Origin: Streptomyces sp. Root1304
Lineage (GTDB): Bacteria; Actinomycetota; Actinomycetes; Streptomycetales; Streptomycetaceae
Reading direction: 5' to 3'
DNA: 64,000 nt
Assembly (NCBI RefSeq): GCF_001426405.1
Contig: NZ_LMEP01000002.1
Coordinates: forward strand, 259,181-323,180
Part shown: piece after piece, positions 5,067 to 20,396 of the stretch
How the letters are laid out: each line of letters starts with the position of its first letter
Position numbering within the stretch: position 1 is the first letter of the stretch
Program-made: the position numbers and the translations under genes
Notes under the pieces: generated by a model
Databases searched by the model: none
The model's input: the letters and a program-made list of their open reading frames with translations, nothing else
Told to the model about the DNA's origin: nothing

Positions 5067-5069
5067 GTT

Positions 5070-5135: not shown

Positions 5136-5142
5136 GCGACGG

Positions 5143-7867: not shown

Positions 7868-7957
7868 GATGGGTGTTCCTTCCGGTTGAGAGATCGGCGA
7901 GGGGTACGGCTCCCGGGCGGCGGATGCTTGGCGGTATCGAGGCCGCCCGGGGGCCGG

Positions 7958-8281
7958 TCAGCGGCGCCGGGTCGAGGACGCCATCAGCGAGCGGACGACG
8001 ACGGCGCAGACGGCGACCGATGCGGCAGTGACGGCGGTCGCGAGGAGTATCGAGACCAGGACCGTGCCGACGACCAGGACGACGGCGGTGCCGGCTCCGA
8101 TGACGGCGAGCGCGGTGCCGGGCGTGATCTGGACGGTGGGCCGGGCCGGAGCCGCCGGGGCGGGCATCGGAGCGACCGGGGCCGGGAACTGCGCGGTCTG
8201 GATCGCGGTCGGCTCGACGACGGCGGGCGGGGTGACGACGCCGGTCGGCAGCGGCATGGTCGGGATCTTGGGTCGGAGCAT
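7958..8281 (-). CDS. small spread-type membrane protein (SpdB-like)
   Basis: A 107-residue protein starting MLRPKIPTMPLP. The first 55 residues are proline- and alanine-rich and soluble. The rest (PGTALAVIGAGTAVVLVVGT onward) forms two transmembrane helices, ending in a basic tail (STRRR). It sits in the row of spread genes between rep and tra, where such elements encode Spd proteins that move plasmid from the entry point to neighbouring mycelial compartments. The function is assigned from position and topology, not from a specific motif. Confidence 0.75.
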   Translation of the reverse strand: MLRPKIPTMPLPTGVVTPPAVVEPTAIQTAQFPAPVAPMPAPAAPARPTVQITPGTALAVIGAGTAVVLVVGTVLVSILLATAVTAASVAVCAVVVRSLMASSTRRR

Positions 8282-8306
8282 GGATGGTTCTCCCTTCCGG
8301 GTCAGG

Positions 8307-8465
8307 TCACTTGGAGATCGCGGTGTCGATGACGGGGGCCAGCAGGCTGTCGGCGAGGAGGAAGCCGCCGAGGAGGAGCACGGCGACGAGCCACCAGGGC
8401 GGGCGGATGAGCTTGATGCCGAGGGCACCGACGACGATCAGGGCGAGCCAGAGCGGGACGTCCAC
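8307..8465 (-). CDS. 52-residue membrane peptide of the spread region
   Basis: GTG 8463-8465 opens a 52-codon frame with GGAAG eight bases upstream. The product is almost wholly hydrophobic: PLWLALIVVGALGIKLI then PWWLVAVLLLGGFLLADSLL form two membrane helices. It lies 13 bases from its neighbour on one side and 25 on the other, all on the same strand. Tiny membrane proteins like this are regular parts of AICE spread modules (SpdB2/SpdA type). It is easily missed because it is shorter than most gene-finding cut-offs. Confidence 0.75.
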   Translation of the reverse strand: MDVPLWLALIVVGALGIKLIRPPWWLVAVLLLGGFLLADSLLAPVIDTAISK

Positions 8466-8478
8466 GAGGAGCTTCCGT

Positions 8479-8673
8479 TCAGTCGGAGATGCGGCAGCGG
8501 TGGGTACGGGCCGCGAGCTGGGCGGCGGCGGAGCTGGAGTAGTCGGAGGACCAGCCGCAGCGGTCGGAGGTGCAGACGGCGGCGTACTTCGTGCGGCCGT
8601 GGCGGTCGCGGTGGGTGCCGATCTGCACGGGGCCGATCCGCATCACGGAGTGGAAGTGGTCGCGGGGTGCCAT
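8479..8673 (-). CDS. mobile element transfer protein, small and basic
   Basis: A 64-residue protein beginning MAPRDHFHSVMRIGPVQIGT. It has several histidines and four cysteines or cysteine-like positions (VCTSDRCGW and HRC near the end) that could hold a metal. It corresponds to the small mobile element transfer protein found beside the DUF2637 gene in many Streptomyces AICEs. Its exact task in transfer or spread is not known. The gap to the next spread gene is 13 bases, consistent with one transcript. Confidence 0.8.
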   Translation of the reverse strand: MAPRDHFHSVMRIGPVQIGTHRDRHGRTKYAAVCTSDRCGWSSDYSSSAAAQLAARTHRCRISD

Positions 8674-8690
8674 GACGTTCTCCGTTCTGA

Positions 8691-9338
8691 TCAGGCGAGT
8701 TGGGCGGCGATGGCGTCGGCCATGGGCGCGGGGACGCCGAGGCGGGCACGTAGGGCGTCGGTGTCGATGGGCCGGCCGGTACGGGTGAGGTGGTCGGCAG
8801 CGACCTTGCGGGCGTGGTCGACGAGAGCGGCCGGGACGGGCGCGGCGGGGGCGATGGCCGGTTCCGGCGGGACAGGCTCCGACTCGGCGACGTACTCGGG
8901 TGGGGTCGGCATGAGGCTGACCGGTTCCGGCTCGACCAGCGGTTCCGGCACGGGACCCGTCTCCGTCTCGACTGGAGGGGCGGAGGAGTGGGCGAGGAGC
9001 GTGCCACCGAGGAACGCGACCGCGGGCCATCCGGCGATACCGAAGCGAAGCCAGGCGGGCGGGTCGGCGAGGTCGAGGAACCCGGCGGTGGCGACGTTCG
9101 CGCCGAGCGAGGCGAACAGGGACACCAGGAACCAGCACCAGGCGAGCCGGGACGAGCCGTCCGAGCGGAGCCGGCGCCAAGCGGCGACCAGGAGCAGATC
9201 GACGGAGACGGGGTAGGCCCACGCCTTCCAACCGGTCTGTCCGGCAGCGGCGGCCAGGTCGTGCAGGTGGGCGAAGGACAGCGCACCGGCGATCAGGGCT
9301 TGGATCAGCACGGCGTCGACGCGGAGCTTGCTGGTCAT
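8691..9338 (-). CDS. DUF2637 membrane protein (SpdB-type spread protein)
   Basis: A 215-residue integral membrane protein with four predicted helices in residues about 8-125 (for example VLIQALIAGALSFAHLHDLA and WLRFGIAGWPAVAFLGGTLL). A soluble, proline/glutamate-rich linker and a small C-terminal DNA-binding-like segment follow (ALVDHARKVAADHLTRTGRPIDTDALRARLG), which may be a winged helix. This is the DUF2637 architecture of conjugative-element spread proteins. A perfect GGAGG precedes ATG 9336-9338. It lies between tra and the smaller spread genes, so it likely acts with the translocase at the septal membranes. Confidence 0.85.
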   Translation of the reverse strand: MTSKLRVDAVLIQALIAGALSFAHLHDLAAAAGQTGWKAWAYPVSVDLLLVAAWRRLRSDGSSRLAWCWFLVSLFASLGANVATAGFLDLADPPAWLRFGIAGWPAVAFLGGTLLAHSSAPPVETETGPVPEPLVEPEPVSLMPTPPEYVAESEPVPPEPAIAPAAPVPAALVDHARKVAADHLTRTGRPIDTDALRARLGVPAPMADAIAAQLA

Positions 9339-9388
9339 GCGGCCACCTCCTTATACGGGCGTTTTGGGCATGGCGGGGGTAGGGATGT

Positions 9389-9407
9389 GGCGCGATGTGG
9401 TCGCGCC
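9389..9407. terminator. small hairpin between tra and the spread genes
   Basis: GGCGCGA (9389-9395) and TCGCGCC (9401-9407) form a perfect 7-bp stem with a five-base loop in the 90-base gap after tra. It may attenuate transcription into the spread genes. Confidence 0.4.
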
Positions 9408-9428
9408 GACCGGATGGAGCGGGGAGGT

Positions 9429-10793
9429 TCAGACGGTCGCCGGGGACTCGGCAGCCGCCGGAGCCGGGATCTTGACCAGGTCTACGGACGGCTCGATGGC
9501 TGGCCGGAAGGCGGCGAGGCCGGGCAGGTCCGGGGTGAGGTGTGCGTACTTGTTGCAGACATTGACGGCCGTACGGAGCGAGGTGTGCGGCGTACGGACC
9601 CGGGACCAGCCGCCGGAGGCGTCGCCGGTGATGGCGAGGCCGGGAGAGGTGACGGGGATCTGGATGGTGGCGAGGACGGCGTCCGGTGCGATGTCGCCGA
9701 AGGTCATGTTGGCGCTGGTCTCGTCGTTGACGCGGTGGGCGGTACGGACGCTGAGCTGGGCACGGAGCATCGTGATGCCCTTGCCGAGTTCGGAGCCGAA
9801 GCGCTGTCCGCAGATCTCCAGATAGATGCCGGCGGCGCGGCCGAGCTGGGCGAGTCGAGCAATCGCGGTGATGATCCGGTCTCGTCGCTTCTCTTCCTCC
9901 TTCGTGGCGAAGAGGGCGAGTTCGGCGACCTCGTCGACGAGGACGACGACGGGAACGGGACGGAGCTGGTCGGGCAGGTCCCAGATGTCGGCGGCGATGT
10001 CGGCGTCCGGGGTGTCGGCGGTGATGCGCTGTTCGGCGCGGATGAGTCGGTAGACGCCTTCCATGTGCGCGATGAGGGCGTCGAGGAGGTCGGCGGCGGT
10101 GTCGGGGTTGTCAGCGAGGGCGGAGAAACGGCGAGCCAGAGGAAACAGCTCGACCCCCTGCTTGCAGTCGATCCCCACCAAGGCGACGTCCTGCGGCGTG
10201 AGTTCGGCGACCAGGTTCCGCTGGTAGACGGACTTCCCGGACTTGGTCGCACCGATAGTGAGGGCGTGTGGGGTGGTGCGGTAGTCGCGGTAGTGGACGG
10301 CTCCGTCCTCGCGCAGGGCGACCGGCACACGCATGGGCGAGCGCTTGGCGCCGGCGGGCATCTGAACCCGCTTGAGCACGTCGTATCCGGTCATCCGGAG
10401 TTCGACGACGCCGGAGCGGATCTCTCGCGAGGCCACGCCGTACATGCCGAACGAGTGCCGCAACCGGTCGCACGAGGCAGCCACGTCGAAGGCGTCCTGC
10501 CCCGGACGGAGCCCTAGCCGTAAGACGAGGCCGGTCCGGGTCGGCCGGAGCCGCAGGATGCGGGGCGCCCGCGGCTCCGGTACGGGCCGGTTGGCCATCC
10601 TGGCAAGGGCGAGACGCCAGCGGGGCGGCGGAACGGTCAGCCCGCAGGCATCCATGACCGAGGAGTACCGGACCAGGACCCGAAGGACGGCGAGCACGAC
10701 CCCGAAGGTCAGCCAGTACCAGGTGGGCCGCCGCCACCGCAGGAGCCCCGCAAGGACGGCGACCAGCGCGACGGACGCGATCAACCACCGCAT
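9429..10793 (-). CDS. traSA: FtsK/SpoIIIE-type conjugal DNA translocase (TraSA/TraB-like)
   Basis: A 454-residue ATP-driven DNA pump. Two N-terminal membrane helices (residues 1-45) anchor it. Walker A is GATKSGKS (about residue 205) and Walker B is VVVLVDEVAEL. The C-terminal part should include the winged helix that reads the clt transfer sites. Streptomyces TraB proteins of this family move double-stranded DNA between mycelia without a relaxase, so this single protein is the core of transfer. Its start is two bases from the stop of the pra-like gene, so they are one operon. It is shorter than chromosomal FtsK, as expected for AICE translocases. Confidence 0.93.
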   Translation of the reverse strand: MRWLIASVALVAVLAGLLRWRRPTWYWLTFGVVLAVLRVLVRYSSVMDACGLTVPPPRWRLALARMANRPVPEPRAPRILRLRPTRTGLVLRLGLRPGQDAFDVAASCDRLRHSFGMYGVASREIRSGVVELRMTGYDVLKRVQMPAGAKRSPMRVPVALREDGAVHYRDYRTTPHALTIGATKSGKSVYQRNLVAELTPQDVALVGIDCKQGVELFPLARRFSALADNPDTAADLLDALIAHMEGVYRLIRAEQRITADTPDADIAADIWDLPDQLRPVPVVVLVDEVAELALFATKEEEKRRDRIITAIARLAQLGRAAGIYLEICGQRFGSELGKGITMLRAQLSVRTAHRVNDETSANMTFGDIAPDAVLATIQIPVTSPGLAITGDASGGWSRVRTPHTSLRTAVNVCNKYAHLTPDLPGLAAFRPAIEPSVDLVKIPAPAAAESPATV

Positions 10794-10795
10794 GA

Positions 10796-11152
10796 TCAGG
10801 CGGCCTTCGTGGTCGAGGCGGAGGCGACGAGCGAGGTGACCGCAACGGCCCGGAAGGCGATGCCGTGCCGGCGCTGTCCGTTGAACTCGTTCTCCCAGGG
10901 CCGGGCGACGAGGCCGGTGACCGCGACGGGGGTGCCCATGACCAGGTCGGCGGAGACACCGGTCTCCGGGACGGTCACGGTCAGGATCTCCACCTCACCG
11001 TTCGCCGCGAACATGACGTCCACGGTCGACAGCGCGGCGCCGGTCTCGGCGTCCATGGCGCGCTCGCCGGTACGGCGGTCCTTCACCTTGGGCTGCGGGG
11101 GCAGGGCGACCATCACGGAGGCCGCGGAGGTGTCGACAGGGATCGTGCGCAC
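10796..11152 (-). CDS. pra: SCO3937-family regulator, Pra-like activator
   Basis: A 118-residue protein starting at GTG (residues MRTIPVDTSAASVMVALPPQ). RBS AGAGGAG stands eight bases before it; this start is preferred to longer in-frame ones. It belongs to the SCO3937 regulatory family encoded next to tra and korSA in Streptomyces AICEs. In pSAM2 the gene in this position, pra, activates the rep-xis-int operon. The fold looks like a small beta-barrel (GEVEILTVTVPETG; VTGLVARPWENEFNGQRRHG), resembling single-strand-binding OB folds rather than a helix-turn-helix. Its promoter region carries two KorSA-type operators. The role as activator is inferred from pSAM2. Confidence 0.75.
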   Translation of the reverse strand: MRTIPVDTSAASVMVALPPQPKVKDRRTGERAMDAETGAALSTVDVMFAANGEVEILTVTVPETGVSADLVMGTPVAVTGLVARPWENEFNGQRRHGIAFRAVAVTSLVASASTTKAA

Positions 11153-11183
11153 AGAGATCACTCCTCTAGAAGTGCTGGACTCC

Positions 11184-11205
11184 GTCACTCATGTATATGA
11201 GTGAC
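11184..11205. promoter_or_regulatory. palindromic KorSA-type operator 1 before pra
   Basis: GTCACTCAT and ATGAGTGAC are perfect 9-bp arms around a four-base centre. It contains the core TRTACATGAGT (minus strand) shared with two other sites in this element. Confidence 0.7.
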
Positions 11206-11221
11206 ATGAAGAAGAGTGCCC

Positions 11222-11239
11222 GACTCCTATACATGAGTC
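11222..11239. promoter_or_regulatory. KorSA-type operator 2 before pra
   Basis: An imperfect palindrome containing CTCCTATACATGAGT. The same 15 bases, with one R-type change, occur at the korSA/pif promoter. It lies between the pra and korSA genes. Confidence 0.65.
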
Positions 11240-11290
11240 AACCCGCCCGGGCGAAGAAGTCCGAGCGGGCTGAGGAGAGTTGACCGCCCG

Positions 11291-12070
11291 TCAGTCAGCG
11301 GCAGGGATCCGATACTCGAAAACGAACTGGTCAGCGGCCATGAGGGTGTCGCAGACCTCGACGACGCGACCGGTCTTGGTGACGGCGTTCCGCAGCAGGT
11401 GAACGACGGGCGCCCCGGGGCTCAGCGCGAGTTCGGAGGCTTCGGCCTTGGCAGCTGGCCGAGCCTGCAACGTCTCGACGAACTCGGTGAAGACGTGCCC
11501 GTCGTCCTCCAAGCGGGCGTAGATGCCGCCGGGCCCAGGGTTCTCGGAGAAGAGCTGAGGGATGTCCTTGACCACGTCCCACGGAAGGTAGGAGGAGGCG
11601 GTCTCAACGGGAACGCCGTTACGGAAGTACAGACGCCGCCGCGCGAGCACTTGCGTACCGGTGTCGACACCCAGGCGCTCGGCGATGCCCTCCGGCGCTT
11701 CCATCGGCCCGATGTAGAGGACGCTGACCTTGGCGGTCGCACCGGACTGGGCGGACTCGGCAAGGTAGGCAGCCTTCCCACCCCGGCGGTGCGAGGCCCG
11801 GAACCGATCCGAGGAGCGCAGCCGCACGGGCGGCCGGTCCTTCACGATCGACCCCTTACCGTGCCGCGTCTCCACGAGCCCGCTCGCACGAACCTCGACC
11901 ATCGCCTTACGGATGGTCCCGCCGGCGACGCCGTACCGCTCGACGAGCTCGGACTCACTCGGCACCAGGTCGCCAGGCTTGAGTACGCCGGCCCGGATCT
12001 GCTGCACGATCTCCTCGGCGATCTGGACGTACCGAGGTACGGCCCTACCACCTCCTGCTGTCGTTCCCAT
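11291..12070 (-). CDS. korSA: GntR-family repressor (KorSA-like)
   Basis: A 259-residue GntR/HutC regulator. The N-terminal winged helix is at residues about 10-75 (PRYVQIAEEIVQQIRAGVL, then SESELVERYGVAGGTIRKAM). The C-terminal UTRA ligand-binding domain follows (VLARRRLYFRNGVPVETASSYLPWDV). In pSAM2 KorSA represses pra and itself and so keeps the element silent. Here three copies of a shared operator core lie before pra and between korSA and the divergent Nudix gene, which fits the same circuit. ATG 12068-12070 is used; an in-frame GTG at 12080-12082 is an alternative start. Confidence 0.85.
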   Translation of the reverse strand: MGTTAGGGRAVPRYVQIAEEIVQQIRAGVLKPGDLVPSESELVERYGVAGGTIRKAMVEVRASGLVETRHGKGSIVKDRPPVRLRSSDRFRASHRRGGKAAYLAESAQSGATAKVSVLYIGPMEAPEGIAERLGVDTGTQVLARRRLYFRNGVPVETASSYLPWDVVKDIPQLFSENPGPGGIYARLEDDGHVFTEFVETLQARPAAKAEASELALSPGAPVVHLLRNAVTKTGRVVEVCDTLMAADQFVFEYRIPAAD

Positions 12071-12090
12071 AGTCCTTCTCACTCTCCTAT

Positions 12091-12109
12091 GCTCCTGTAC
12101 ATGAGTAAC
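12091..12109. promoter_or_regulatory. KorSA-type operator 3, overlapping the pif start codon
   Basis: CTCCTGTACATGAGTAA shares its core with the two sites before pra. It sits in the divergent korSA/pif promoter and includes ATG 12101. A -10-like TATGCT at 12088-12093 lies seven bases before this ATG, so the Nudix mRNA may be leaderless and directly blocked by the repressor. Confidence 0.65.
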
Positions 12110-12559
12110 AGCGCCCGAGAGACGACGTCAACGCCACTGCACTCCGTGTCGGTCGCGGGCGCGGTCGTGCGAGAAGACGGCCGACTCCTGGCGATCCGCC
12201 GCGCGGACAACGGCACGTGGGAACTCCCGGGCGGCGTGCTCGAACTCACGGAGGCCCCCGAAGAGGGCGTGGCCCGCGAGGTCTGGGAAGAAACAGGCAT
12301 CAGGGTAGAGGTCGAGGAACTGACCGGGGTCTACAAGAACACGACCCGGGGCATCGTGGCGTTGGTCTTCCGCTGCAAGCCGGCAGGCGGCGAGGAGCGA
12401 ACCTCGACGGAGTCGACCGCGGTCGAGTGGCTCACCCCGGAAGAGATCACCGCCCGAATGACCGAGGTCTACGCCATCCGCCTCTTGGACGCCCTGGACG
12501 AAGCGGGCCCCCACGTCCGAAGCCACGACGGCCAGCATCTCTCGAAGAAGTCCGCATGA
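12101..12559 (+). CDS. pif: Nudix hydrolase, Pif-like immunity factor
   Basis: A 152-residue Nudix protein. The full Nudix box is present: GGVLELTEAPEEG followed by VAREVWEETGI, with the REVWEE metal-binding core. In pSAM2 the Nudix protein Pif, encoded beside korSA, prevents redundant transfer between cells that both carry the element; position and domain suggest the same role here. The substrate nucleotide is unknown. ATG 12101 lacks an upstream Shine-Dalgarno and seems leaderless. An in-frame GTG at 12146 would also keep the whole domain. It overlaps the next gene by four bases (ATGA). Confidence 0.8.
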   Translation: MSNSARETTSTPLHSVSVAGAVVREDGRLLAIRRADNGTWELPGGVLELTEAPEEGVAREVWEETGIRVEVEELTGVYKNTTRGIVALVFRCKPAGGEERTSTESTAVEWLTPEEITARMTEVYAIRLLDALDEAGPHVRSHDGQHLSKKSA

Positions 12560-12912
12560 CGCAGCCGAAGCAACTGAACGAGTTCGAGAACGTCTACGAC
12601 TTCCTGCACCGGGTCCGCCTTCATCCCGAGGGGTGGGTTCGCCACGGCTCTCTTACGCACCTGGGGGCCATGCTCACTGGCTACCGCGTGGCGATGGCGG
12701 TGTACAACGCCAAGGAAGACTTCCCGTTCTGGACGCCGGGTGGCATCTCTCCGTTCGACGCTTGGCTCGGTCAGCGCAACGACTGCCTCCCGGCCCGGGG
12801 CTGGGCGATAGAGATCGAGCACGAAGCAGAGAGCACCAGCACCTCAGCAATTGCACTGTTCTTCACCCTGCTCGACCAGTTCCAAGCGGAGCGCCAACAG
12901 CCAGCGCGGTAA
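12556..12912 (+). CDS. conserved AICE protein of unknown function, partner of the Nudix gene
   Basis: A 118-residue acidic soluble protein starting MTQPKQLNEFENVYDFL. I do not recognise a domain. The sequence is well structured and aromatic-rich (MLTGYRVAMAVYNAKEDFPFW; DAWLGQRNDCLPARGWAIEIEH), and it ends in a helix. It begins inside the Nudix stop codon (ATGA overlap), so the two proteins are made together and may form one complex or share the immunity role. There is no signal peptide or membrane segment. Confidence 0.75.
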   Translation: MTQPKQLNEFENVYDFLHRVRLHPEGWVRHGSLTHLGAMLTGYRVAMAVYNAKEDFPFWTPGGISPFDAWLGQRNDCLPARGWAIEIEHEAESTSTSAIALFFTLLDQFQAERQQPAR

Positions 12913-13391
12913 GAGTTTCCCTACTTCATCAAGGCACCCGCCGCGCACGGCGCGGCGCGCGCGGCCCGTCGTCCGGGCCTGCGCTCCTGTCTCCGCCCCG
13001 CTCCAGCCCGGCCGCCGTCCGCACGCCTGACGGCTCGGGTTGATGGGCGACGAACCCATGGGCGGCCGAGGCGGCACGCGAGTGCGGCTCAAGGCGATGC
13101 CTCCGGCGGGGGCGCTCAGGCTCCGGGATGGAGGGGCCATGGGCGTCTGCCGGCAGCGTCGTGGCGGAGGTGGGGGCTCCCATCACGCCTGCCATCGACC
13201 CAGGCAGAGCCGAGCAGACACGGCACCGGTCCAGGTCGTTCGTACAGTGGCGCGCTCCACCTGGACGCCCGGCACCGCGCCTGCTCCACGGTGTGTGGGT
13301 CGACGGCAGACGGGATGGGAGTTGGGGGGCGAGCGGTGGGTTCACGTGAGCACCTCGGACGCGGCTCAAGAGATTGGCGCGCGATCTGTCG
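12913..13391. other. GC-rich non-coding region, candidate origin or transfer locus
   Basis: Nearly 480 bases without a convincing gene; frames here are short or irregular. It starts with a hairpin of perfect 7-bp arms (12940-12946 and 12950-12956) in an alternating GC tract, then a GGGTT/AACCC pair near 13037-13057. Such a structured gap between the transfer-control genes and the cargo is where a cis-acting clt site or a replication origin could lie. This is inferred from position only. Confidence 0.35.
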
Positions 13392-14378
13392 CTAAGACTT
13401 CAGGCGCCTACGGAATGCCCCCTTGAACTTCTCGATATGCAAGAGGCGCTCCCCTGAATCACGGAAGAGGATGCGAACCATTCGCTCCTGCGCTAGCGAG
13501 CGGTACCCGCCGGTCGAGGGGGAGAATTCCCTGTCGAGTTCGGATGCCGCCCTGACCAGGTCTCTACCTTTGGGCGTTAGAGGTGCAATGAACATTCCAA
13601 CCATGCCGTCGTCGGCGCTTCGCCTCAGGTTATCGAAGTCCAGGCGAACCAAGTCGTGAGCAAGGAGGAAGGAAACGTATCGGTCAAGGAATTCATAGTC
13701 CTCCGCACCCCAAGACAGCAATCTATCTTGATGCTCAAGGTAGATATCCTTCTCCCTCATGATCTCGCCAAATAGATCCATCCCGAAGTAGAGGCAATTC
13801 CCGACATCGGTTAGGCCATGGAAGAACAGATCGAAGAATGATTGGCTGGTCCCATGCATCCCGTTGGTTTGATCCAGCATCTCTCTGAGCAGGCCTGTTG
13901 GATCGAAGCCAAGAACGGGTAGTTCGCCGTCGAGGCTGAGAATTTCGAGAACTGCGCCAGCGTCTAGGCGCTGACTCTCGGAAACACGCAGCTCCGCATC
14001 AAGATCGGCTCGGAGTTGGTGCCGAGCATCTCCCCAGATGGCGAGATCCTCGTCCGGGTGATACAGGACGATGACGACAGGGATGGGGAATGACGCCCAG
14101 TAGTTTCGATGCTTTGCCTCGGGCTTGAATCTGACGATGCCGTCAGCTCGCTTGGAGAAGTATGACGAACCCGACTTGATCTGCACTGCAGCGAGCCTAC
14201 CGGTAGCTCGACCTTCGGCATCTACATACTCGATCTGCCCGTCAATTCCCACATCATGCATCTGCGTCTCACGCCAGAGACACCCGGATTCTTCGGTGAT
14301 TTCATCTACTTTCCTGACCCCTTTCCTTTCCGTGAATTTACTACCTGGCACCTTTGGGCTATCGCTATAGCGAGACAT
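13392..14378 (-). CDS. DUF4365 protein, putative PD-(D/E)xK nuclease fold
   Basis: A 328-residue protein. The N-terminal DUF4365 domain (about 20-165) begins ERKGVRKVDEITEESG and contains DVGIDGQIEYVD and LAAVQIKSG. This Asp...Glu...Gln-x-Lys spacing matches the PD-(D/E)xK nuclease core, where a Gln can replace the second acidic residue. The C-terminal half (about 170-328) is unrecognised, rich in Leu, Phe and Asp. The codons are visibly less GC-rich than in the element's core genes, marking it as acquired cargo. It follows the 410-residue protein gene by 90 bases on the same strand and may be co-transcribed. An anti-phage or anti-plasmid role is plausible but unproven. GTG 14390 is an alternative start. 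Confidence 0.8.
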   Translation of the reverse strand: MSRYSDSPKVPGSKFTERKGVRKVDEITEESGCLWRETQMHDVGIDGQIEYVDAEGRATGRLAAVQIKSGSSYFSKRADGIVRFKPEAKHRNYWASFPIPVVIVLYHPDEDLAIWGDARHQLRADLDAELRVSESQRLDAGAVLEILSLDGELPVLGFDPTGLLREMLDQTNGMHGTSQSFFDLFFHGLTDVGNCLYFGMDLFGEIMREKDIYLEHQDRLLSWGAEDYEFLDRYVSFLLAHDLVRLDFDNLRRSADDGMVGMFIAPLTPKGRDLVRAASELDREFSPSTGGYRSLAQERMVRILFRDSGERLLHIEKFKGAFRRRLKS

Positions 14379-14468
14379 GCCCCTCCCCACCTAAAATATC
14401 GACACGGGTGATCAGTCGAGATAGTGCAGCAGGGCGAACGGTCGGGACGCGCTTGGTCCGCTGATCCT

Positions 14469-15701
14469 TCATTCCCCCCGAGGCTCGTCGCCGAAAAGGT
14501 CTATCTGCCCTTCGACAGCAGAGGGTCGCACAGGTCGTCCGCGTCGCTGCATAAGCGACTCGATCGGCCCGAGCGTCTCCACGACGGTGGCGTTGTACAG
14601 CCAGTTCAAAGTCCCCTCGCGCTCCAAGTTCCCGCTAACTCGAATCGCAAGATCTTCTTCGTGAGCACGAACAGCCTCGTGGTAATCCTCTTCTTCCGCG
14701 AGCCGCACTCTAACCTTCTTGGGTTGCTCTCCAGTGAGGGATTCGACGCCAAATACTCCCGGGCTCCCGGCAACCTTCTTAGCTAGGAGGTGAACCCTTC
14801 CTGAAATCACCGCACGCTCAGAAGGACCTTGCTCGACTAGCACATTGGCGGCCCTCTCTAGGATCGGAGCGTCACTACCGCGCAAGTCGAATCGCACTGA
14901 GCCACTTTTCCCAGGCACGGGAAGGGCAGAATTTAGATCGACGGAGATATCAGCACCGTCGGAATTAGACGTCATAGCAAGCAGCGCCGTCGCCATTTCG
15001 TAGGATACGCCGCTATTCACTCCCTCCTCGAACCCAGACAAGGAGTGGTGATGCCTGAAGTGCTCAACGGCCTCGACAGTCGCCTCCACGGCTCTGATGA
15101 CCGCAAGGCTCACTTGGCGAGACTGAGCTACGTTGGCCCCGACCAGGTCGGGCAAGGCTCGTGATCCACCATGGATGGGGACCACTGAATCGGCCTGCGC
15201 GTAGGCGGTGACGATGTAGCTACCGGGCGCCGTCTGGCCCATCAGCACGGAATCTAGATACCGGTTAGCGAATTGCCCAAACTTGTTACTAAAGTGACGG
15301 ATTGGCGCCATGTAGGATTTCGCACCCGCCAGGAGCGTGCGCCTTGCTGAAGAAATTAGCTGCTCGCCTGCGCGCCACGAGATCATCCCGCTCGGAGCTG
15401 ATGATTCACGTCGAAACTTAAACTCGTCGGCGATGTCTACAATCAACCTGGGGGAAAGCGTCCTGGTCCATAGATCCCGATCCTCTGAGAGCTGACGCAA
15501 TGCAGCTTCCATCAGGAATGAGAATTCCGGCGCTTGCTCGTCAAGCGGCACCAGAAGGTTCGCACCTTCGTTCGGAGGGGAGAATCTCCCGTAGGACCCA
15601 TCCCTTCCGCCAACAAGGGTCCAGCCCACCTCGCTGAGGATGAGAGCCAGCTTATTCGGATCTACACCTTCAGGGATGAAGAGTTCGTCATCAATATTCA
15701 T
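14469..15701 (-). CDS. 410-residue cargo protein of unknown function
   Basis: I do not recognise this protein. It starts MNIDDELFIPEGVDPNKL; ATG 15699-15701 lies inside the end of the upstream nuclease-like gene (11-base overlap), so translation is coupled. The middle (about 95-240) is helical. Residues about 250-395 look strand-rich, with repeated short segments such as AVISGRVHLLAKK, KKVRVRLAEEEDY and IRVSGNLEREG, resembling a small barrel. It ends in a polar tail (GQIDLFGDEPRGE). It has no membrane segment or signal. Low GC and position between two DUF4365-like genes suggest a sensor or specificity subunit of a cargo system. Confidence 0.75.
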   Translation of the reverse strand: MNIDDELFIPEGVDPNKLALILSEVGWTLVGGRDGSYGRFSPPNEGANLLVPLDEQAPEFSFLMEAALRQLSEDRDLWTRTLSPRLIVDIADEFKFRRESSAPSGMISWRAGEQLISSARRTLLAGAKSYMAPIRHFSNKFGQFANRYLDSVLMGQTAPGSYIVTAYAQADSVVPIHGGSRALPDLVGANVAQSRQVSLAVIRAVEATVEAVEHFRHHHSLSGFEEGVNSGVSYEMATALLAMTSNSDGADISVDLNSALPVPGKSGSVRFDLRGSDAPILERAANVLVEQGPSERAVISGRVHLLAKKVAGSPGVFGVESLTGEQPKKVRVRLAEEEDYHEAVRAHEEDLAIRVSGNLEREGTLNWLYNATVVETLGPIESLMQRRGRPVRPSAVEGQIDLFGDEPRGE

Positions 15702-16233
15702 TGAGCGATTCACCCCTGTCCAGCTTATCGAGAATGTTGGCAAGAGCGTTGGCGTCGAACACGTTCGCAGTCGGGATGCGTACGGTCTGACTCTCCACGC
15801 CTTCCTTCGCGGCCTGCCCTTCGAGGGAGACCCAGTAGCAGCAGTGACTCACCTCAAGTCGATCATGACTCGCCTTGGTCCAGTCTGCTTGCCTAACCGA
15901 CGTCGCCATGACGATCAAGATCGCCTTGGGGTCCTTGCGCTGCAGCGCCAGTCGATCAAAGTACTCACGCTTCTTCAGCTGGTAGCCGAACGTGTCCTTC
16001 TTGGGGTCAGGCCGGAGCGTCGTTGTGTTCTTCAGCTGAGCGAACACGCTGACCTCCTGCTTGCCGACACCTTCGGGAGGACGTACCAGCAACGCATCCA
16101 TACCATAGACGTCGCGTCTGACAGACTCCATGGCGCAGCCAGCGGTAGCAGCCACAGCCGCAACATAGCCCTCCTGGAGCTGCTCCATGAAAGCAGTGAA
16201 GGTGTCGTCGTTCACCGCCTCGATACGACCCAC
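15691..16233 (-). CDS. DUF4365-like putative nuclease, first gene of the cargo operon
   Basis: A 180-residue protein. GTG 16231-16233 is chosen because GGGGAGGG lies about ten bases upstream; a longer TTG start at 16287 is possible. The core DVYGMDALLVRP followed by VSVFAQLKNT again shows Asp then Gln-x-Lys, the PD-(D/E)xK-like pattern seen in DUF4365. The segment KAILIVMATSV and the tryptophan-rich CCYWVSLEG are typical strands of that fold. It lacks the long C-terminal half of the 328-residue paralogue. Its end overlaps the next gene by 11 bases. Together they form a coupled two-gene unit, perhaps with the third gene downstream. Confidence 0.78.
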   Translation of the reverse strand: MGRIEAVNDDTFTAFMEQLQEGYVAAVAATAGCAMESVRRDVYGMDALLVRPPEGVGKQEVSVFAQLKNTTTLRPDPKKDTFGYQLKKREYFDRLALQRKDPKAILIVMATSVRQADWTKASHDRLEVSHCCYWVSLEGQAAKEGVESQTVRIPTANVFDANALANILDKLDRGESLNEY

Positions 16234-16641
16234 GCGTTCATGCCCTCCCCGTCGGCGTACCTCGCTACACATCGCCCCAAGCTGCAACCGAGGCTAGATC
16301 AACAGCATGCGGAAGGTAAGCGATAGTGAAGAATGCGTGTGCGCGGAGGCTAGGGCTCCGGCGCAAGGTCCCTGACTGTGGTCAGCTCCGGCCAGGTGGT
16401 CGCTGACGCGGGCTGCCTCGCTAGACGGCCAAGAGGGACCGGCGCCGAGCAGGTGCAGCTTTACGTAGACAACGAGTGCCTCGGCCGGAATCAAAGCTGG
16501 TCTGACCTGCGGAGATACGCAAGACTTGGGGGCCTCCGTAGTCGCGTGTCCGAATCGTCGCTACTCAACAGGGCCCCGGGGTATCCCCCAGGGCCCTCTG
16601 ATTCCGAAGGAGCAGCACTAGCCGAAAGCTGCTGCCGGCAG
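16234..16641. other. intergenic region between cargo and regulatory genes
   Basis: About 400 bases of mixed composition without a convincing gene. It should hold the promoter of the cargo operon near 16240-16340, where an AT-richer tract lies, and the terminator at 16570-16597 for the genes on its right. Confidence 0.5.
16570..16597 (-). terminator. hairpin terminator after the right-hand small-gene operon
   Basis: AGGGCCC and GGGCCCT form the outer stem and GGGG/CCCC an inner stem around TAT, within 16570-16597. It lies just past the leftward operon that ends near 16642. Confidence 0.65.
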
Positions 16642-16962
16642 TCAAGGGCTGGCGTCGCCTCCCCGGGCAGGGAGTTGTGGAGTCACTAGGCGCTGGCCGC
16701 GGCTTGTCGCCACACGGAGGGCGTCCCGCAGTGCTCCGACCAGGTCTGCGGACAGTTCTCGGAGTTCTTCGGGATCCACTGCCTCGTCGTCCAGGACGTT
16801 CACCGCGTGTTTCACGAGGTTGTCGGCCAGGCCGAGCTGAATCGCTTCGGTGGTATCGGCCAGGCGGGACAGGTGGCTGCTGTCGTCGTCGGTGCTCAGG
16901 TAGCAGGGCTTGCCATCGGGGCCCGACCACGGGAGGAGGCGGAGCTCGCTGTGGGCTGTCAT
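16642..16962 (-). CDS. small AICE protein of unknown function
   Basis: A 106-residue soluble protein beginning MTAHSELRLLPWSGPDGKPC. The first 35 residues look strand-like. Residues 36-90 form helices rich in Asp, Glu and Leu (LADNLVKHAVNVLDDEAVDPEELRELSADL). I do not recognise it beyond noting that similar short genes follow GntR regulators in AICEs. Its ATG overlaps the stop of the GntR gene by four bases (ATGA), so it is the last gene of a tightly packed leftward operon. Confidence 0.7.
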   Translation of the reverse strand: MTAHSELRLLPWSGPDGKPCYLSTDDDSSHLSRLADTTEAIQLGLADNLVKHAVNVLDDEAVDPEELRELSADLVGALRDALRVATSRGQRLVTPQLPARGGDASP

Positions 16963-17630
16963 CCTTCCGTTCCCCTCTCTTCAGTCGTGTGATGAGTGGT
17001 GAAGAGTGCGTCAGCGCGGTCGCTGGGGAGGACCAGGAGGGCCGCTTCCATCACTCGGCCGGTGGTGTCGGTCGACACGCGGGTGATGGAGAGGACGGCC
17101 AGGGTTGCGCTGATGCGGAGCATCGACGCTTCCTCGGGGGTTGGGAGGCGGGCGCTGATCTGGTCTTGGCTCTGCTCCGCAGCGGATAGGTGCCAAGAGG
17201 GCATGGCCGACGCCGGGTCACGCGGGACGTAGATGCGGGTCAAGCTGTGCGGGGACTCTCCCGAGTGGGTGAGGTAGAGGAACTCCGTCAGCGGCGTGCG
17301 CGCGGGGACCTTCAGCAGGGGGATCAGGTCTCCGTGGGCTCTGAGGGTGGTGGTGCGGATCGTGACGTGGAGGTCTGTGTCCGGGATGAGGCGGCCTCCT
17401 GTGTACGTGAGTCTGCGGAGCGGGCCGCGGACGTAGTTGCCCTTGCCGTGGATCTTCTCGATCAGGCCCTCGGCCTGGAGGAGCGCGAGGGCGTTGCGCA
17501 GGGTTGGGGTGCTGACCTTGTACTGGGCGGCGAGTCTCGGTTCCGAGGGGAGGCGGGCGCCGGCCTTCAGGTGGCCGGTGGTGATCTGCGCCCGGAGGTC
17601 GGCGGCGATGGTGTCGCGGAGGGACGGCAT
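16959..17630 (-). CDS. second GntR-family regulator of the element
   Basis: A 223-residue GntR/HutC regulator. The DNA-binding domain spans about 1-70 (LRDTIAADLRAQITTGHLKAG; RLAAQYKVSTPTLRNALALLQAEGLI). It is followed by a UTRA-like domain (TPLTEFLYLTHSGESPHSLTRIYVPR). It lies inside an operon of small overlapping genes, so it may control that operon or sense a host signal. The start is uncertain: ATG 17628-17630 is used, but GTG 17640-17642 overlaps the previous stop by four bases and would add four residues. It shares the family, but not close identity, with the KorSA-like protein. Confidence 0.82.
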   Translation of the reverse strand: MPSLRDTIAADLRAQITTGHLKAGARLPSEPRLAAQYKVSTPTLRNALALLQAEGLIEKIHGKGNYVRGPLRRLTYTGGRLIPDTDLHVTIRTTTLRAHGDLIPLLKVPARTPLTEFLYLTHSGESPHSLTRIYVPRDPASAMPSWHLSAAEQSQDQISARLPTPEEASMLRISATLAVLSITRVSTDTTGRVMEAALLVLPSDRADALFTTHHTTEERGTEG

Positions 17631-17638
17631 GGGGTCGG

Positions 17639-17863
17639 TCACCACCTTCTGAGCACTCGTACGGCGATCAGGCGCGTATGGGTGTGCATCGTCAGGAGTT
17701 CGCCCGATTCGAAAAGGAGGCGCTTGGCGCCGCCGGGGAGTTGGCGGAGGTCCGCTACTCGGCACGGTTGGCCGCCGATCTGGATGACGTCGCCGCGCTG
17801 GACCGTGGCCGTGGTGATCTCGACCGGGGAAGCGAGTGCACCGCCGGGGGGCATGCCGTTCAT
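17639..17863 (-). CDS. small beta-rich protein of unknown function
   Basis: A 74-residue protein starting MNGMPPGGALASP. The body reads as short strands (VQRGDVIQIGGQPCRVADLRQL; RLLFESGELLTMHTHTRLIAVRVLRRW), which would suit a small SH3- or KOW-like barrel. It is flanked by overlapping genes on both sides (four bases with the upstream Cys/His-rich gene; start of the GntR next to its stop). It is common in shape to small regulatory-region proteins of AICEs. No function can be named. Confidence 0.7.
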   Translation of the reverse strand: MNGMPPGGALASPVEITTATVQRGDVIQIGGQPCRVADLRQLPGGAKRLLFESGELLTMHTHTRLIAVRVLRRW

Positions 17864-18039
17864 GAGGCGGCCTCCGGTGACATGGCCGGGGAGTGGCAGG
17901 GGCAGACACACGCCTCGTAGATGACCGGGATGTCGATCGGCGCCGTCGTCGGGGAGGAGTGTGCGCACTCGTGGTGCGTGCCGATCCGGCATGCGCTGGA
18001 CCGGTAGGGCGTGGACGCCGCCGTGGGGACGCGGGTCAT
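17860..18039 (-). CDS. tiny Cys/His-rich protein, possible zinc ribbon
   Basis: A 59-residue protein starting MTRVPTAASTPYRSS. It has the sequence CRIGTHHECAHSS, then about 18 residues later ACVCPCHSP. Four to five cysteines and four histidines in paired spacing suggest one or two zinc sites. The start (18037-18039) overlaps the upstream gene by four bases and its stop overlaps the downstream gene by four. It could be a small DNA- or protein-binding adaptor. The tiny size makes the call depend mainly on the overlapping operon structure. Confidence 0.68.
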   Translation of the reverse strand: MTRVPTAASTPYRSSACRIGTHHECAHSSPTTAPIDIPVIYEACVCPCHSPAMSPEAAS

Positions 18040-18335
18040 CCTTGGGCCTCCGCCGGCACGAAGCAGGTGTGGGCGAGGAGGTGATGCGGGATCAACGCCG
18101 AGCTCTGCCGTGTCCGCTGCTCGCCGGCCAGGACGTAGGGGCGGACAAGGGCCGTCTCCTCGCCTGCGAGGAAGTCCGTGCGGTCTCCGAGCCGTCGGAG
18201 GAACAGCGTCAGTTCGTTGGACGGTTTGGGGAGGATGAGCGTCGGACGCGTCGGCGTTAAGGCCCCGCGGTGCCGGGCCGTTTGGGCGTACCGCTCCCTG
18301 GTGCGTCTGATGGCGCGGCGGATACGGTTGAGCAT
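18036..18335 (-). CDS. small basic protein of unknown function
   Basis: A 99-residue protein beginning with an arginine-rich helix (MLNRIRRAIRRTRERYAQTARHRG), which may bind nucleic acid. It is followed by NELTLFLRRLGDRTDFLAGEETALVRPYVLAGEQR. AGGAG stands ten bases before its ATG. It overlaps the Cys/His-rich gene by four bases. The sequence does not resemble a family I can name. Confidence 0.68.
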   Translation of the reverse strand: MLNRIRRAIRRTRERYAQTARHRGALTPTRPTLILPKPSNELTLFLRRLGDRTDFLAGEETALVRPYVLAGEQRTRQSSALIPHHLLAHTCFVPAEAQG

Positions 18336-18347
18336 GCTGATCAGCTC

Positions 18348-18626
18348 CTATCGCTGATGGCCAGGTCCCCGGACATCGCCCGTCGCGGGGGCCACTTTGT
18401 TCACGGCGGCCCAGAGGGTGCGGCCGCCCAGGCTGGTGGCCAGGAGACCGAATCGGTCCGCCGTCGCCACCACTTCCAGGACCTCCCGCCATATCTCGGC
18501 GGGGAGGGATTCCGGTACCTCCGCTTCGATCGATGTGTGCCGCGGGTGCTCTTCCACGCGTGTGGTGAGTCCGACGGCTGACAACCGGGCGGCCAGGGCC
18601 TCCGCGCTTACTTCTGGAGCAGGCAC
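18348..18626 (-). CDS. first gene of the leftward small-gene operon, unknown function
   Basis: A 92-residue soluble protein. GTG 18624-18626 is chosen since GGAGG lies seven bases before it; an upstream GTG at 18653 has no such site. Sequence: PAPEVSAEALAARLSAVGLTTRVEEHPRHTS... with helix-strand alternation and a TADRFGLLATSLGGRTLWAAV segment. It lies 79 bases from a divergent GntR gene with paired operators between them. It therefore heads an operon of six genes down to 16642 that this GntR probably controls. Confidence 0.7.
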   Translation of the reverse strand: MPAPEVSAEALAARLSAVGLTTRVEEHPRHTSIEAEVPESLPAEIWREVLEVVATADRFGLLATSLGGRTLWAAVNKVAPATGDVRGPGHQR

Positions 18627-18664
18627 AGGGCAGCCTCCGTCACCGGCGATCACTTTAAGTGAAG

Positions 18665-18695
18665 CTAGTTAACTAGATTAGAGCTAGTGGACTAG
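18665..18695. promoter_or_regulatory. paired CTAGTNNACTAG operators between divergent genes
   Basis: CTAGTTAACTAG (18665-18676) and CTAGTGGACTAG (18684-18695) are two perfect-armed palindromes 19 bases apart, about two helical turns. They lie between the small-gene operon and the third GntR gene. A -10-like TAGATT (18693-18698) overlaps the second and sits seven bases before the GntR ATG. Confidence 0.75.
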
Positions 18696-18704
18696 ATTTT
18701 CCAT

Positions 18705-19460
18705 ATGCCTGAGCAGCCGCCTTATCTCCGCATCGCCGACGAACTGCGGCGGCGGATCGCGGAGCACGAGTGGACCCCTGGAGACCGGCTGCCCTCTCGG
18801 GCCCAGATCGGTCAGGAGTGCGGGGTGGGCGAGAATGTCGTCCGCCGAGCCCAGGAGTTGCTGATCTCCCAGGGCGTGTTGGAGGGGCGGGCCGGGTCCG
18901 GGACCTATGTGGCCGAGCCCCGGGCGCGGGTCAGGATGGTTCGGTCCGCAGCGCGCGAGCAGCCGGACGGGTCCCCGTTCCGGGCCGACATGAAGGCCGT
19001 GGGACGGAATGGCGGCTGGGAGAGCCGGACCGATGCGAAGGAGCCGGCGCCGGCCGAGATCGCTGCGCGGCTCGGGATCGGTGAGGGCGAGCTGTGCGTC
19101 CGGACCGTGTATGAGTTCCTCGCCGACGGTCGGCCTGTGCAGTTGTCGACGAGTTGGGAGCCGTACGACCTGACCGGCGGGACACTCGTCGTCCTTCCCG
19201 AGGGTGGGCCGCACGCCGGGGCCGGCGTCGTGAACCGGATGGCTCAGATCGGCATCACAGTCAGCCATGCCGTGGAGCAGCCGGAGCCGCGGCAGGCTAC
19301 TGCCGAGGAAGCGTCACTACTCGGGATCCAGAAGGCCGCGCTCGTCACCCACATCCGACGGACGTACTACAGCGACCAGGGCCACCCCGTTGAGACTGCA
19401 GACATCGTGATCCCTGCCTCGCTGTGCGAGGTCGTCTACGAGGTAGCCATCCAGCGATAA
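18705..19460 (+). CDS. third GntR-family regulator of the element
   Basis: A 251-residue GntR/HutC protein. Winged helix at residues 5-70 (YLRIADELRRRIAEHEWTPG; IGQECGVGENVVRRAQELL), then a UTRA domain (VRTVYEFLADGRPVQLSTSWEPYDL). ATG 18705 has no Shine-Dalgarno and follows a -10-like box by seven bases, so the transcript is probably leaderless. Two palindromic operators overlap this promoter, which implies self-repression and control of the divergent six-gene operon. The element thus has three GntR regulators and at least two separate operator types. Confidence 0.85.
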   Translation: MPEQPPYLRIADELRRRIAEHEWTPGDRLPSRAQIGQECGVGENVVRRAQELLISQGVLEGRAGSGTYVAEPRARVRMVRSAAREQPDGSPFRADMKAVGRNGGWESRTDAKEPAPAEIAARLGIGEGELCVRTVYEFLADGRPVQLSTSWEPYDLTGGTLVVLPEGGPHAGAGVVNRMAQIGITVSHAVEQPEPRQATAEEASLLGIQKAALVTHIRRTYYSDQGHPVETADIVIPASLCEVVYEVAIQR

Positions 19461-19888
19461 CAGCGGCACCTCCCGCTAGGCCCCTGCCTCAAGCCTGGCG
19501 GCGACGAGTTCCGCGGCGCATCTGTCGCCCCATCTCTGCACGGGCTCCGACCGCTCCTGGGCCCCATAGCTCTCAGGGGCCACGATCGTCTGCCCCGTGC
19601 GCACGGCCCGCCAGCTACCTGACGCAGTCTCCCCTCAGACTCACTCACAACATCGCCGATTATCTCGGCGAAAACTTGAGAGTATTAGTTGCGCCGATTA
19701 TCTCGGCGAAAACTTGAGAGTATTAGACGTCTCGATTATCTCGGCGAAAACTTGAGAGTATTAGACGTGTCGAGGATTGACACATCAAGACCGCCCCTGA
19801 CCTGCACGTTTGCAATTCCCTGGTCGAGTGCTCAAGAATTACCACACTTGCTCTTTGACCCCTCTTCCAATGAGAGGGGAGGCCACCC
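19461..19888. other. non-coding region with three 38-bp direct repeats
   Basis: More than 400 bases without a convincing gene. The centre (19654-19764) holds three tandem repeats. The right end (19860-19888) is the leader of the small membrane ORF, with GGGGAGG and half of a stem-loop. The first 180 bases show nothing specific. Confidence 0.55.
19654..19764 (+). repeat. three 38-bp-period direct repeats with internal hairpins
   Basis: Copies start at 19654, 19692 and 19730 and share 35 bases each. The first two are identical and the third differs at its start. Each full copy opens with CGCCGATTATCTCGGCG, a hairpin with 6-bp stem, and continues with AAAACTTGAGAGTATTAG, an AT-rich tract unusual in this genome. 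They lie about 600 bases from attR in a gene-free stretch. Options are an iteron-like origin, clt sites read by the translocase, or distal integrase/Xis sites. Confidence 0.85.
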
Positions 19889-19917
19889 ATGCGCCTAGAC
19901 AACGACGGGTGGCCTCC
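19878..19917 (+). promoter_or_regulatory. stem-loop over the ribosome binding site and start codon
   Basis: An 11-bp stem (19878-19888 with 19907-19917) has an 18-base loop. The Shine-Dalgarno GGGGAGG runs into the 5' arm and ATG 19889 is the first loop codon. Folding would hide the ribosome binding site, suggesting translational control. Confidence 0.6.
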
Positions 19918-20221
19918 TGGTCCTCAGTCCTCGCAGACAGGAACCACCTTCAGTATGAGATACCGACTCCGTCGTCTCCAAACGGCAGCGGCCGGCGGCA
20001 GCCCCACGCACGTTCAGGTGGCAGCGCTCCTTGCTGGTGCTGCTCTGATCGCTAGCGGTCAGGCGACCGTTGCAGAAGCAGGCGCTTACGTAGCACCGTT
20101 CCTGCTGATCAGCGAGCGGCTAGCGGCCCGCTACGGTGCGGGACAGACTCAATGTGAGCACGGCCCTCAAGTGCTGCCAGGGGCCCGCGAGCTCAACGCG
20201 CAGGGAGAGTCTGCGCCCTAG
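19889..20221 (+). CDS. small putative membrane protein next to attR
   Basis: A 110-residue frame with a good GGGGAGG eight bases before ATG. The first 40 residues are polar and basic. THVQVAALLAGAALIASGQATV and AGAYVAPFLLISERLAARYG may be two membrane helices. The tail is polar. I do not recognise it. It is the last gene before the attR end and reads towards it. The stem-loop over its start argues for a real, regulated gene, but the short length leaves doubt. Confidence 0.5.
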   Translation: MRLDNDGWPPGPQSSQTGTTFSMRYRLRRLQTAAAGGSPTHVQVAALLAGAALIASGQATVAEAGAYVAPFLLISERLAARYGAGQTQCEHGPQVLPGARELNAQGESAP

Positions 20222-20245
20222 GAGCGATGGGCTGCGTACCGAAGC

Positions 20246-20270
20246 CTGACATCCACGGCTGACATCAACG
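20246..20270 (+). repeat. right arm-type repeat pair
   Basis: The same 25-base double unit as at 5111-5135 with one mismatch, 84 bases inside attR. Having it at both ends in direct orientation suits integrase arm sites. Confidence 0.55.
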
Positions 20271-20353
20271 CGGGCGCACGCAGACAGTTTCAGGCGGCTA
20301 GCAGGAGCTAGGCTGGCAGCCTGAACAGACCCCTGAGGCTCGACCCGATCGAA

Positions 20354-20396
20354 CTCCTAAAGCGGGTGTCGCAGGTTCGAATCCTGCCGGGGGCAC
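20354..20396 (+). repeat. attR core (43-bp direct repeat)
   Basis: An exact copy of 5022-5064, a tRNA-Arg 3' fragment without the 5' half. The chromosomal sequence resumes with AAGG, so the original tRNA gene did not encode CCA. Confidence 0.95.

What the first reader, a model, noticed from the sequence alone, without database searches (positions are those of the whole stretch)
13392..16233. Cargo operon with two PD-(D/E)xK-like genes and an unknown 410-residue protein
Three low-GC genes on one strand sit between the conserved modules of an AICE. Two carry Asp ... Gln-x-Lys signatures of DUF4365, a putative nuclease fold. The middle one is unrecognised, and its start overlaps the first gene by 11 bases, forcing coupled production. 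Nuclease plus large partner as swappable cargo of a mobile element is the usual look of an anti-phage or inter-element defence system. I do not know a described system of this composition, so it is the best candidate for something new here.
Basis: partly seen in the sequence, partly recalled or inferred. Interest (0 to 1): 0.85.

Follow-up and report, generated by a model that had tools for sequence, protein, structure and literature searches.

The report
Mobile nuclease pair with clamp tail
A mobile element of a soil bacterium carries a two-gene cassette, a predicted DNA-cutting enzyme and a partner protein whose tail carries the short motif that replication proteins use to dock on the cell's DNA sliding clamp, so this catalogued but untested defence candidate may cut invading DNA while it is being copied.

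Summary
The sequence observation holds; the trio does not. Genes A (15691-16287, DUF4365) and B (14469-15701, 410 aa, 11-base overlap) are the two components of PDC-M02, a candidate two-gene phage-defence system in PADLOC-DB (E 5e-99 and 7e-127). A and B are adjacent, in that order, in nearly all relatives, from Streptomyces to plasmids of Proteobacteria, Spirochaetota and Bacillota and a Mycobacterium abscessus prophage. Gene C (second DUF4365) is separate cargo, absent from the other A+B loci checked. I found no paper on PDC-M02. New here: B models as an unassigned alpha/beta core plus an SSB/PriB-like OB fold, and mobile actinobacterial copies end in a canonical beta-sliding-clamp motif (window EGQIDLFGDE; host DnaE1 EGQFDLFGG). 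It occurs in 15 of 17 mobile copies (shuffled mean 0.26) and in 0 of 695 background genes. A sibling element carries a divergent A+B (32-34% identity) in the same slot. A related M02 pair sits upstream of thrS in most Streptomyces. Best reading: a replication-coupled nuclease immune module tethered through the sliding clamp. Clamp binding and anti-phage activity are predicted, not shown.

The parts
15691..16287 (-). Gene A: PDC-M02A, DUF4365 PD-(D/E)xK-type nuclease (198 aa from the most upstream start; ATG 16272 or GTG 16233 also possible)
   Evidence: PADLOC PDC-M02A E 4.7e-99; Pfam DUF4365 E 3.4e-14; E35, D59, D64 and Q84-L-K86 invariant in 12 diverse homologues
16030..16038 (-). Q-L-K active-site motif of gene A
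   Evidence: Invariant in alignment A1; the equivalent Q62/K64 pair of TmuRE was mutated to give the inactive enzyme in the DUF4365-APAZ study (PMC10810196)
14469..15701 (-). Gene B: PDC-M02B, 410 aa partner protein; its ATG overlaps gene A by 11 bases
   Evidence: PADLOC PDC-M02B E 7e-127; AlphaFold2 model mean pLDDT 88
15537..15701 (-). B N-terminal alpha-beta-beta-beta segment, weakly HicA-like in structure only
   Evidence: Secondary structure; Foldseek rows 6g26_E/F (HicAB), prob 1.00 but E 0.05; no Pfam support
14832..15536 (-). B central alpha/beta domain without a confident structural match
   Evidence: Folded alone, pLDDT 88.6; best Foldseek E 0.11; best VIA Z 4.9
14550..14831 (-). 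B C-terminal OB fold (residues about 291-384), SSB/PriB/RPA-like
   Evidence: VIA Z 8-9.5 to SilF, S. coelicolor SSB (4dam Z 8.7, rmsd 2.9, 86 aligned), PriB and RPA; Foldseek top rows are mostly SSB/RPA OB folds
14493..14507 (-). QIDLF, putative beta-sliding-clamp-binding pentapeptide (residues 399-403 of B) in the low-confidence C-terminal tail
   Evidence: 15 of 17 mobile relatives against a shuffled mean of 0.26; motif 65% identical in a 28% identical linker; host DnaE1 EGQFDLFGG, background 0 of 695 genes
13392..14390 (-). Gene C: DUF4365 nuclease domain (residues about 14-150) plus a C-terminal region of unknown function; separate cargo, not part of the A+B system
   Evidence: Pfam DUF4365 E 9.9e-28; SPARDA DUF4365 protein 9qbq E 8e-9; no co-occurrence with A+B
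13328..16618 (.). Cargo slot: interval replaced in a sibling element of Streptomyces sp. CB02009
   Evidence: DNA identity 77% over 7986-13327 and 86% over 16619-19444, none between; the sibling has a divergent A+B there and no C
5022..20396 (.). AICE bounded by 43-bp att repeats at tRNA-Arg(CCT)

Best explanation
Genes A and B form a two-component nuclease immune module, PADLOC candidate PDC-M02, carried in the swappable cargo slot of an AICE. A is a PD-(D/E)xK-type DNA nuclease (inferred from family and conserved residues). B is its targeting and licensing partner: the OB fold probably holds single-stranded or branched replication DNA, and the QIDLF tail probably docks on the host beta sliding clamp (DnaN). 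The complex would thus sit on DNA being copied and release A's nuclease when it meets an abnormal replication intermediate, such as a replicating phage or a competing rolling-circle element, degrading the invader or killing the cell. Overlapping genes keep A and B production in step. Shown here: family identity, strict pairing, cargo exchange, the OB fold in the model and the clamp motif. Inferred: A-B complex, clamp binding, DNA trigger, anti-phage or anti-plasmid outcome. Gene C is an independent nuclease cargo gene.
For: PADLOC hits to both components. A lies directly upstream of B in 98 of 101 loci (some duplicates) and in plasmids of Tistrella, Gluconobacter, Phaeobacter, Paenarthrobacter, Entomospira, Pusillibacter and Streptomyces and an M. 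abscessus prophage. Nuclease residues are invariant, the motif also in 67 of 68 chromosomal copies. OB fold. Clamp motif: 15 of 17 mobile B proteins, no occurrence in their bodies, shuffled mean 0.26, maximum 3 in 5000; Q and F 15/15 each in a variable linker; the host's DnaE1 carries EGQFDLFGG and its NucS ends in LRLF; 0 of 695 background genes. Published bacterial consensus QL(S/D)LF at the C-terminus (PMC9690074). The same slot in a sibling AICE holds a divergent A+B, and slots beside the same flanking element in other genomes hold ABC-3C, TIR-NTPase, Rosmer RmrA, HNH and Schlafen-type genes.
Against: The motif is absent from proteobacterial, spirochaete, Bacillota, mycobacterial-prophage and other plasmid-borne members and degenerate (NLDFF) in the chromosomal Streptomyces copy, so clamp docking would be a lineage addition, not the family's core mechanism. 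An M02B match in 343 of 393 Streptomyces genomes, fixed beside thrS, is unusual for a defence system. Ten neighbours of mobile A+B loci had no PADLOC hit. The OB fold is a common fold and Foldseek E-values are weak. The central domain is unassigned. The 17 tails are related, so the shuffle test overstates independence. No wet evidence of any step.
Confidence: 0.45

Rival explanations
1. A+B is a generic nuclease defence pair (PDC-M02) triggered by a phage product or DNA end; the tail motif is a localisation aid or incidental and not needed for immunity.
For: Most of the family outside actinobacterial mobile copies lacks the tail motif; pairing and the active site are the only family-wide features.
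Against: Motif conservation in an otherwise drifting linker argues for selection on it in these copies.
Confidence: 0.3
2. A+B is a housekeeping or DNA-maintenance nuclease like the clamp-stimulated EndoMS/NucS mismatch nuclease; mobile elements carry copies for their own replication or repair.
For: A copy with an intact A active site is present upstream of thrS in most Streptomyces; clamp-docked nucleases work in actinobacterial repair (PMC8228993; PMC9690074).
Against: Family spread on plasmids, a prophage and AICEs with low G+C, and slot exchange between sibling elements, look like defence or competition cargo; the chromosomal copy lacks a clear clamp motif.
Confidence: 0.15
3. B is a replication-arresting protein that occupies the clamp pocket like SocB or RipA, and A is an accessory; the module is toxin-antitoxin-like addiction cargo stabilising the AICE.
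For: SocB and RipA are toxins that act on the clamp's hydrophobic pocket (PMC9690074; PMC12795458); overlapping genes; a weak HicA-like N-terminal fold.
Against: A has an intact nuclease motif rather than an antitoxin look; B is 410 aa with an OB fold; no antitoxin candidate; the position of the HicA catalytic His (from general knowledge of HicA) reads Tyr in this clade.
Confidence: 0.07
4. The three genes A, B and C form one new defence system.
For: Same strand, similar low G+C, 78 bp between B and C.
Against: C is absent from the other A+B loci, including the sibling element; C-like nuclease domains in nine other Streptomyces genomes are not in the genomes with the closest mobile A+B.
Confidence: 0.03

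Closest known systems
PDC-M02 (PADLOC-DB v2 phage-defence candidate, components M02A and M02B)
   Same: Both proteins hit the component models at E 4.7e-99 and 7e-127; adjacent genes
   Different: A candidate only; no publication found. The mobile actinobacterial subgroup adds a clamp-binding tail not seen in other members
SPARDA / DREN-APAZ short-Argonaute systems (PMC10810196, PMC12205087)
   Same: DUF4365 nuclease with a Q-x-K site; gene C's nuclease domain matches SPARDA chains 9qbq, 9qbp and 9jsb
   Different: No Argonaute and no APAZ detected in A, B or C; different partner protein
EndoMS/NucS mismatch endonuclease of actinobacteria (PMC8228993)
   Same: Nuclease tied to the sliding clamp; the host NucS ends in LRLF
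   Different: In M02 the nuclease and the motif are on separate proteins; no sequence relation seen; mobile cargo rather than core repair
SocAB and RipA clamp-targeting toxins (PMC9690074, PMC12795458)
   Same: An accessory protein predicted to bind the clamp's hydrophobic pocket
   Different: Partner is a nuclease with an intact active site, not an antitoxin; no toxicity evidence
pSAM2-type AICEs of Streptomyces
   Same: Integrase, RepSA, FtsK-like transfer protein, GntR regulators, tRNA att site
   Different: Nothing unusual in the backbone; the cargo slot is the point of interest

Membership tests
PDC-M02 (PADLOC) | M02A component: DUF4365 protein | tested here: met
   E 4.7e-99 over residues 15-196
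PDC-M02 (PADLOC) | M02B component | tested here: met
   E 7e-127 over residues 20-418; more than 25 M02B models hit
PDC-M02 (PADLOC) | A and B adjacent on one strand | tested here: met
   Window, 98 of 101 loci, and 6 of 7 further plasmid loci
PDC-M02 (PADLOC) | Anti-phage activity | not testable with these tools
   No publication of PDC-M02 found
DUF4365 / PD-(D/E)xK nuclease | Conserved D...Q-x-K active site | tested here: met
   Invariant in 12 diverse A proteins; the matching residues of TmuRE were mutated to an inactive enzyme in PMC10810196
DUF4365 / PD-(D/E)xK nuclease | Predicted three-dimensional active site | not tested
Beta-clamp-binding protein | QL(S/D)LF-type pentapeptide at a flexible C-terminus | tested here: met
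   QIDLF in the low-pLDDT tail
Beta-clamp-binding protein | Physical binding to DnaN | not testable with these tools
   Needs a binding assay; no complex prediction available
SSB-type OB fold | OB fold in the C-terminal domain of B | tested here: met
   VIA Z 8-9.5, 75-86 residues, rmsd 2.3-2.9 for the best rows; Foldseek E 0.007 or worse. ssDNA binding untested
SPARDA / short pAgo | Short Argonaute (MID-PIWI) partner and APAZ domain | tested here: not met
   No such hit in A, B or C; C matches only the nuclease part of the pAgo-associated models
HicA toxin | HicA fold with catalytic His | tested here: inconclusive
   Weak Foldseek rows 6g26; no Pfam HicA hit; Tyr where His is expected
AICE | Integrase, RepSA, FtsK-like transfer gene, att repeats at a tRNA gene | tested here: met

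The most novel reading that the evidence does not exclude
Mobile actinobacterial M02 systems are replisome-docked immune nucleases: B recognises replication intermediates through its OB fold and is tethered to the host sliding clamp by a QIDLF tail, so the system tells invaders apart by how, not what, they replicate. Streptomyces has in addition kept a relative beside thrS as a core gene.
Probability: 0.3. Interest if true: 0.8.

Novelty: new variant of a known kind. Interest (0 to 1): 0.55.

Why it matters
PDC-M02 is a widespread, uncharacterised candidate. The clamp motif and OB fold give it a concrete, cheaply testable mechanism, replication-coupled targeting through the sliding clamp, which I did not find described for an anti-phage system in the papers searched. 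The exchange of divergent A+B pairs in one AICE slot, with other defence-type genes beside the same flanking element elsewhere, points to an AICE defence hotspot. A core Streptomyces copy next to thrS raises the question of whether a defence module has been domesticated.

Tried and rejected
Trio as one unit: rejected. SPARDA membership of A+B: no Argonaute or APAZ. The search for related loci with P0002 alone in genome contigs found nothing; the alignment-based scan worked. The viral-contig scan with A2 found nothing. Searching PDB sequences with the A or B profiles gave nothing useful. Central domain of B folded alone: best Foldseek E 0.11, best VIA Z 4.9, weak ferredoxin-like or Cas6-type rows, not taken as evidence. 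Pfam scan of 36 B homologues: nothing consistent. PADLOC scan of ten neighbours of mobile A+B loci: nothing. Literature search for PDC-M02 and for clamp-docked anti-phage systems: nothing.

Full report
Observation. The three ORFs, their strand, low G+C, the 410-residue middle protein and the 11-base overlap are as described. They sit in an AICE of 15.4 kb whose ends are a 43-bp exact repeat of the 3' part of tRNA-Arg(CCT), 5022-5064 and 20354-20396, with integrase, RepSA, DUF2637, FtsK/SpoIIIE and GntR genes. The genome has 7.58 Mb in 28 contigs; its relatives that bear names are mostly Streptomyces, so it is very probably a Streptomyces.

Identity. Genes A and B are the two components of PADLOC's phage-defence candidate PDC-M02: A hits PDC-M02A at E 4.7e-99 and B hits PDC-M02B at E 7e-127. 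Pfam has DUF4365 for A and nothing for B. No paper in the searched library mentions PDC-M02. Of the ten papers that mention DUF4365, those on defence deal with the nuclease of short-Argonaute (SPARDA) systems, where a Q62A/K64A mutant of the DUF4365 protein was used as the inactive enzyme (PMC10810196). The equivalent Q-L-K of A, with E35, D59 and D64, is invariant in an alignment of 12 diverse homologues.

Pairing. A lies directly upstream of B in 98 of 101 loci, some of them duplicates; the exceptions are a truncated B seen twice and a B fragment. The pair is also found on plasmids of Alphaproteobacteria, a betaproteobacterium, a spirochaete, a Bacillota member, Paenarthrobacter and Streptomyces and as genes 1-2 of a Mycobacterium abscessus prophage. 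In the Bdellovibrionota member (L156) the gene upstream of B was not recognised by the A profile. The spirochaete copy sits next to a DUF262 gene pair and one Streptomyces plasmid copy lies downstream of cas3.

Gene C does not belong. C-like proteins (only the nuclease domain, residues about 14-149) occur in 9 other of 393 Streptomyces genomes. None of these is among the genomes with the closest mobile A+B copies, and no other A+B locus has a comparable C; one weak match in L064, E 6e-4, is the only trace. C's nuclease domain matches solved SPARDA DUF4365 proteins (9qbq, E 8e-9) but no Argonaute or APAZ is present. C is a separate cargo gene.

Cargo slot. A sibling AICE in Streptomyces sp. CB02009 (L051/L070/L168) aligns at 77% over window 7986-13327 and 86% over 16619-19444, but the interval between is replaced by a divergent A+B (32% and 34% protein identity to the window's) without C. 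The slot is flanked by a 240-bp non-coding element (13091-13327) found in 100 of 150 Streptomyces genomes, the best copies at about 80-92% identity, whose minus strand folds far better than shuffles (z -4.1; plus strand -1.3). Among twelve other copies of that element, six have slot-side genes resembling defence or nuclease families: ABC-3C, TIR-NTPase, Rosmer RmrA, HNH (two) and Schlafen/AlbA. These genes were picked by eye and no control region was scanned, so this is suggestive only.

Structure of B. AlphaFold2 gives mean pLDDT 88. Residues 291-384 form an OB fold whose nearest solved structures are mostly SSB, PriB, RPA and SilF (VIA Z 8-9.5); OB folds are common and Foldseek E-values are weak (0.007 at best). 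Residues 56-292 folded alone (pLDDT 88.6) give no confident match. The first 55-70 residues have a HicA-like arrangement by Foldseek only, with Tyr where HicA has its His, and no Pfam support.

Clamp motif. B ends in EGQIDLFGDEPRGE. The published bacterial clamp-binding consensus is QL(S/D)LF at the C-terminus (PMC9690074). Of 17 distinct mobile relatives, 15 have Qxx[LMFIV]F in the last 35 residues and 11 the stricter form; shuffled tails give means of 0.26 and 0.02; no match lies in the protein bodies. In the 15, Q and F are invariant, position 3 is D, S or P, position 4 is L in 12; the motif is 65% identical on average while the linker before it is 28%. The host's own DnaE1 carries EGQFDLFGG and its NucS ends in LRLF, while 0 of 695 background genes have the motif in the last 35 residues. 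The related sequences are not independent, and members outside this group lack the motif. The chromosomal Streptomyces copies have NLDFF at the equivalent place, which I do not count.

Chromosomal copy. 343 of 393 Streptomyces genomes have a B match. In the 68 loci inspected of the thrS-linked type, a thrS ORF lies downstream in every case once ORF start differences are allowed for (52 by a strict coordinate rule), and the DxGID...QLK motif of A is intact in 67. In a 396-genome phylum sample, clear matches to the M02B model used were confined to this genus. This wide fixation is not typical of defence systems and is the main support for the repair-type rival.

Mechanism. The best reading is a nuclease (A) licensed by a partner (B) that docks on the sliding clamp and reads replication DNA through its OB fold. 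Pairing, active-site conservation, OB fold and motif are shown at sequence or model level. Complex formation, clamp binding, trigger and anti-phage or anti-plasmid effect are inferred. Because the motif is confined to a subgroup, clamp docking is best seen as a lineage-specific targeting device on a family whose basic trigger is unknown.

Noticed in passing
L044 6798-8729 and homologous loci L071-L138: A chromosomal PDC-M02 pair lies directly upstream of thrS in most Streptomyces genomes, with an intact nuclease motif; possibly a domesticated core copy.
   Followed up: partly
window 13091-13327: A 240-bp non-coding element next to the cargo slot, conserved in 100 of 150 Streptomyces genomes and on plasmids (for example NC_006910), with a strand-specific strong hairpin on the minus strand; looks like a single-strand origin or transfer site of rolling-circle elements.
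   Followed up: partly
L051 / L168 (Streptomyces sp. CB02009): Sibling AICE with the same backbone but a divergent A+B pair in the same slot, a natural cargo swap.
   Followed up: yes
L200, L201, L202, L203, L208, L209: Slots beside the same 240-bp element carry Schlafen/AlbA, ABC-3C (PDC-M68), HNH, TIR-NTPase and Rosmer RmrA genes: a possible AICE defence hotspot.
   Followed up: partly
window 19657-19773: Three tandem copies of a 38-bp repeat (CGATTATCTCGGCGAAAACTTGAGAGTATTAG...) inside the AICE near attR, possibly regulator or replication sites.
   Followed up: no
L048 6191-7324 and L052 6230-7273: YaaC-like genes (Pfam PF14175) directly beside B in two Streptomyces loci.
   Followed up: no
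L143 398-2160: The M02 pair is genes 1-2 of Mycobacterium abscessus prophage prophi102-2; prophiGD54-1 has the same match.
   Followed up: partly
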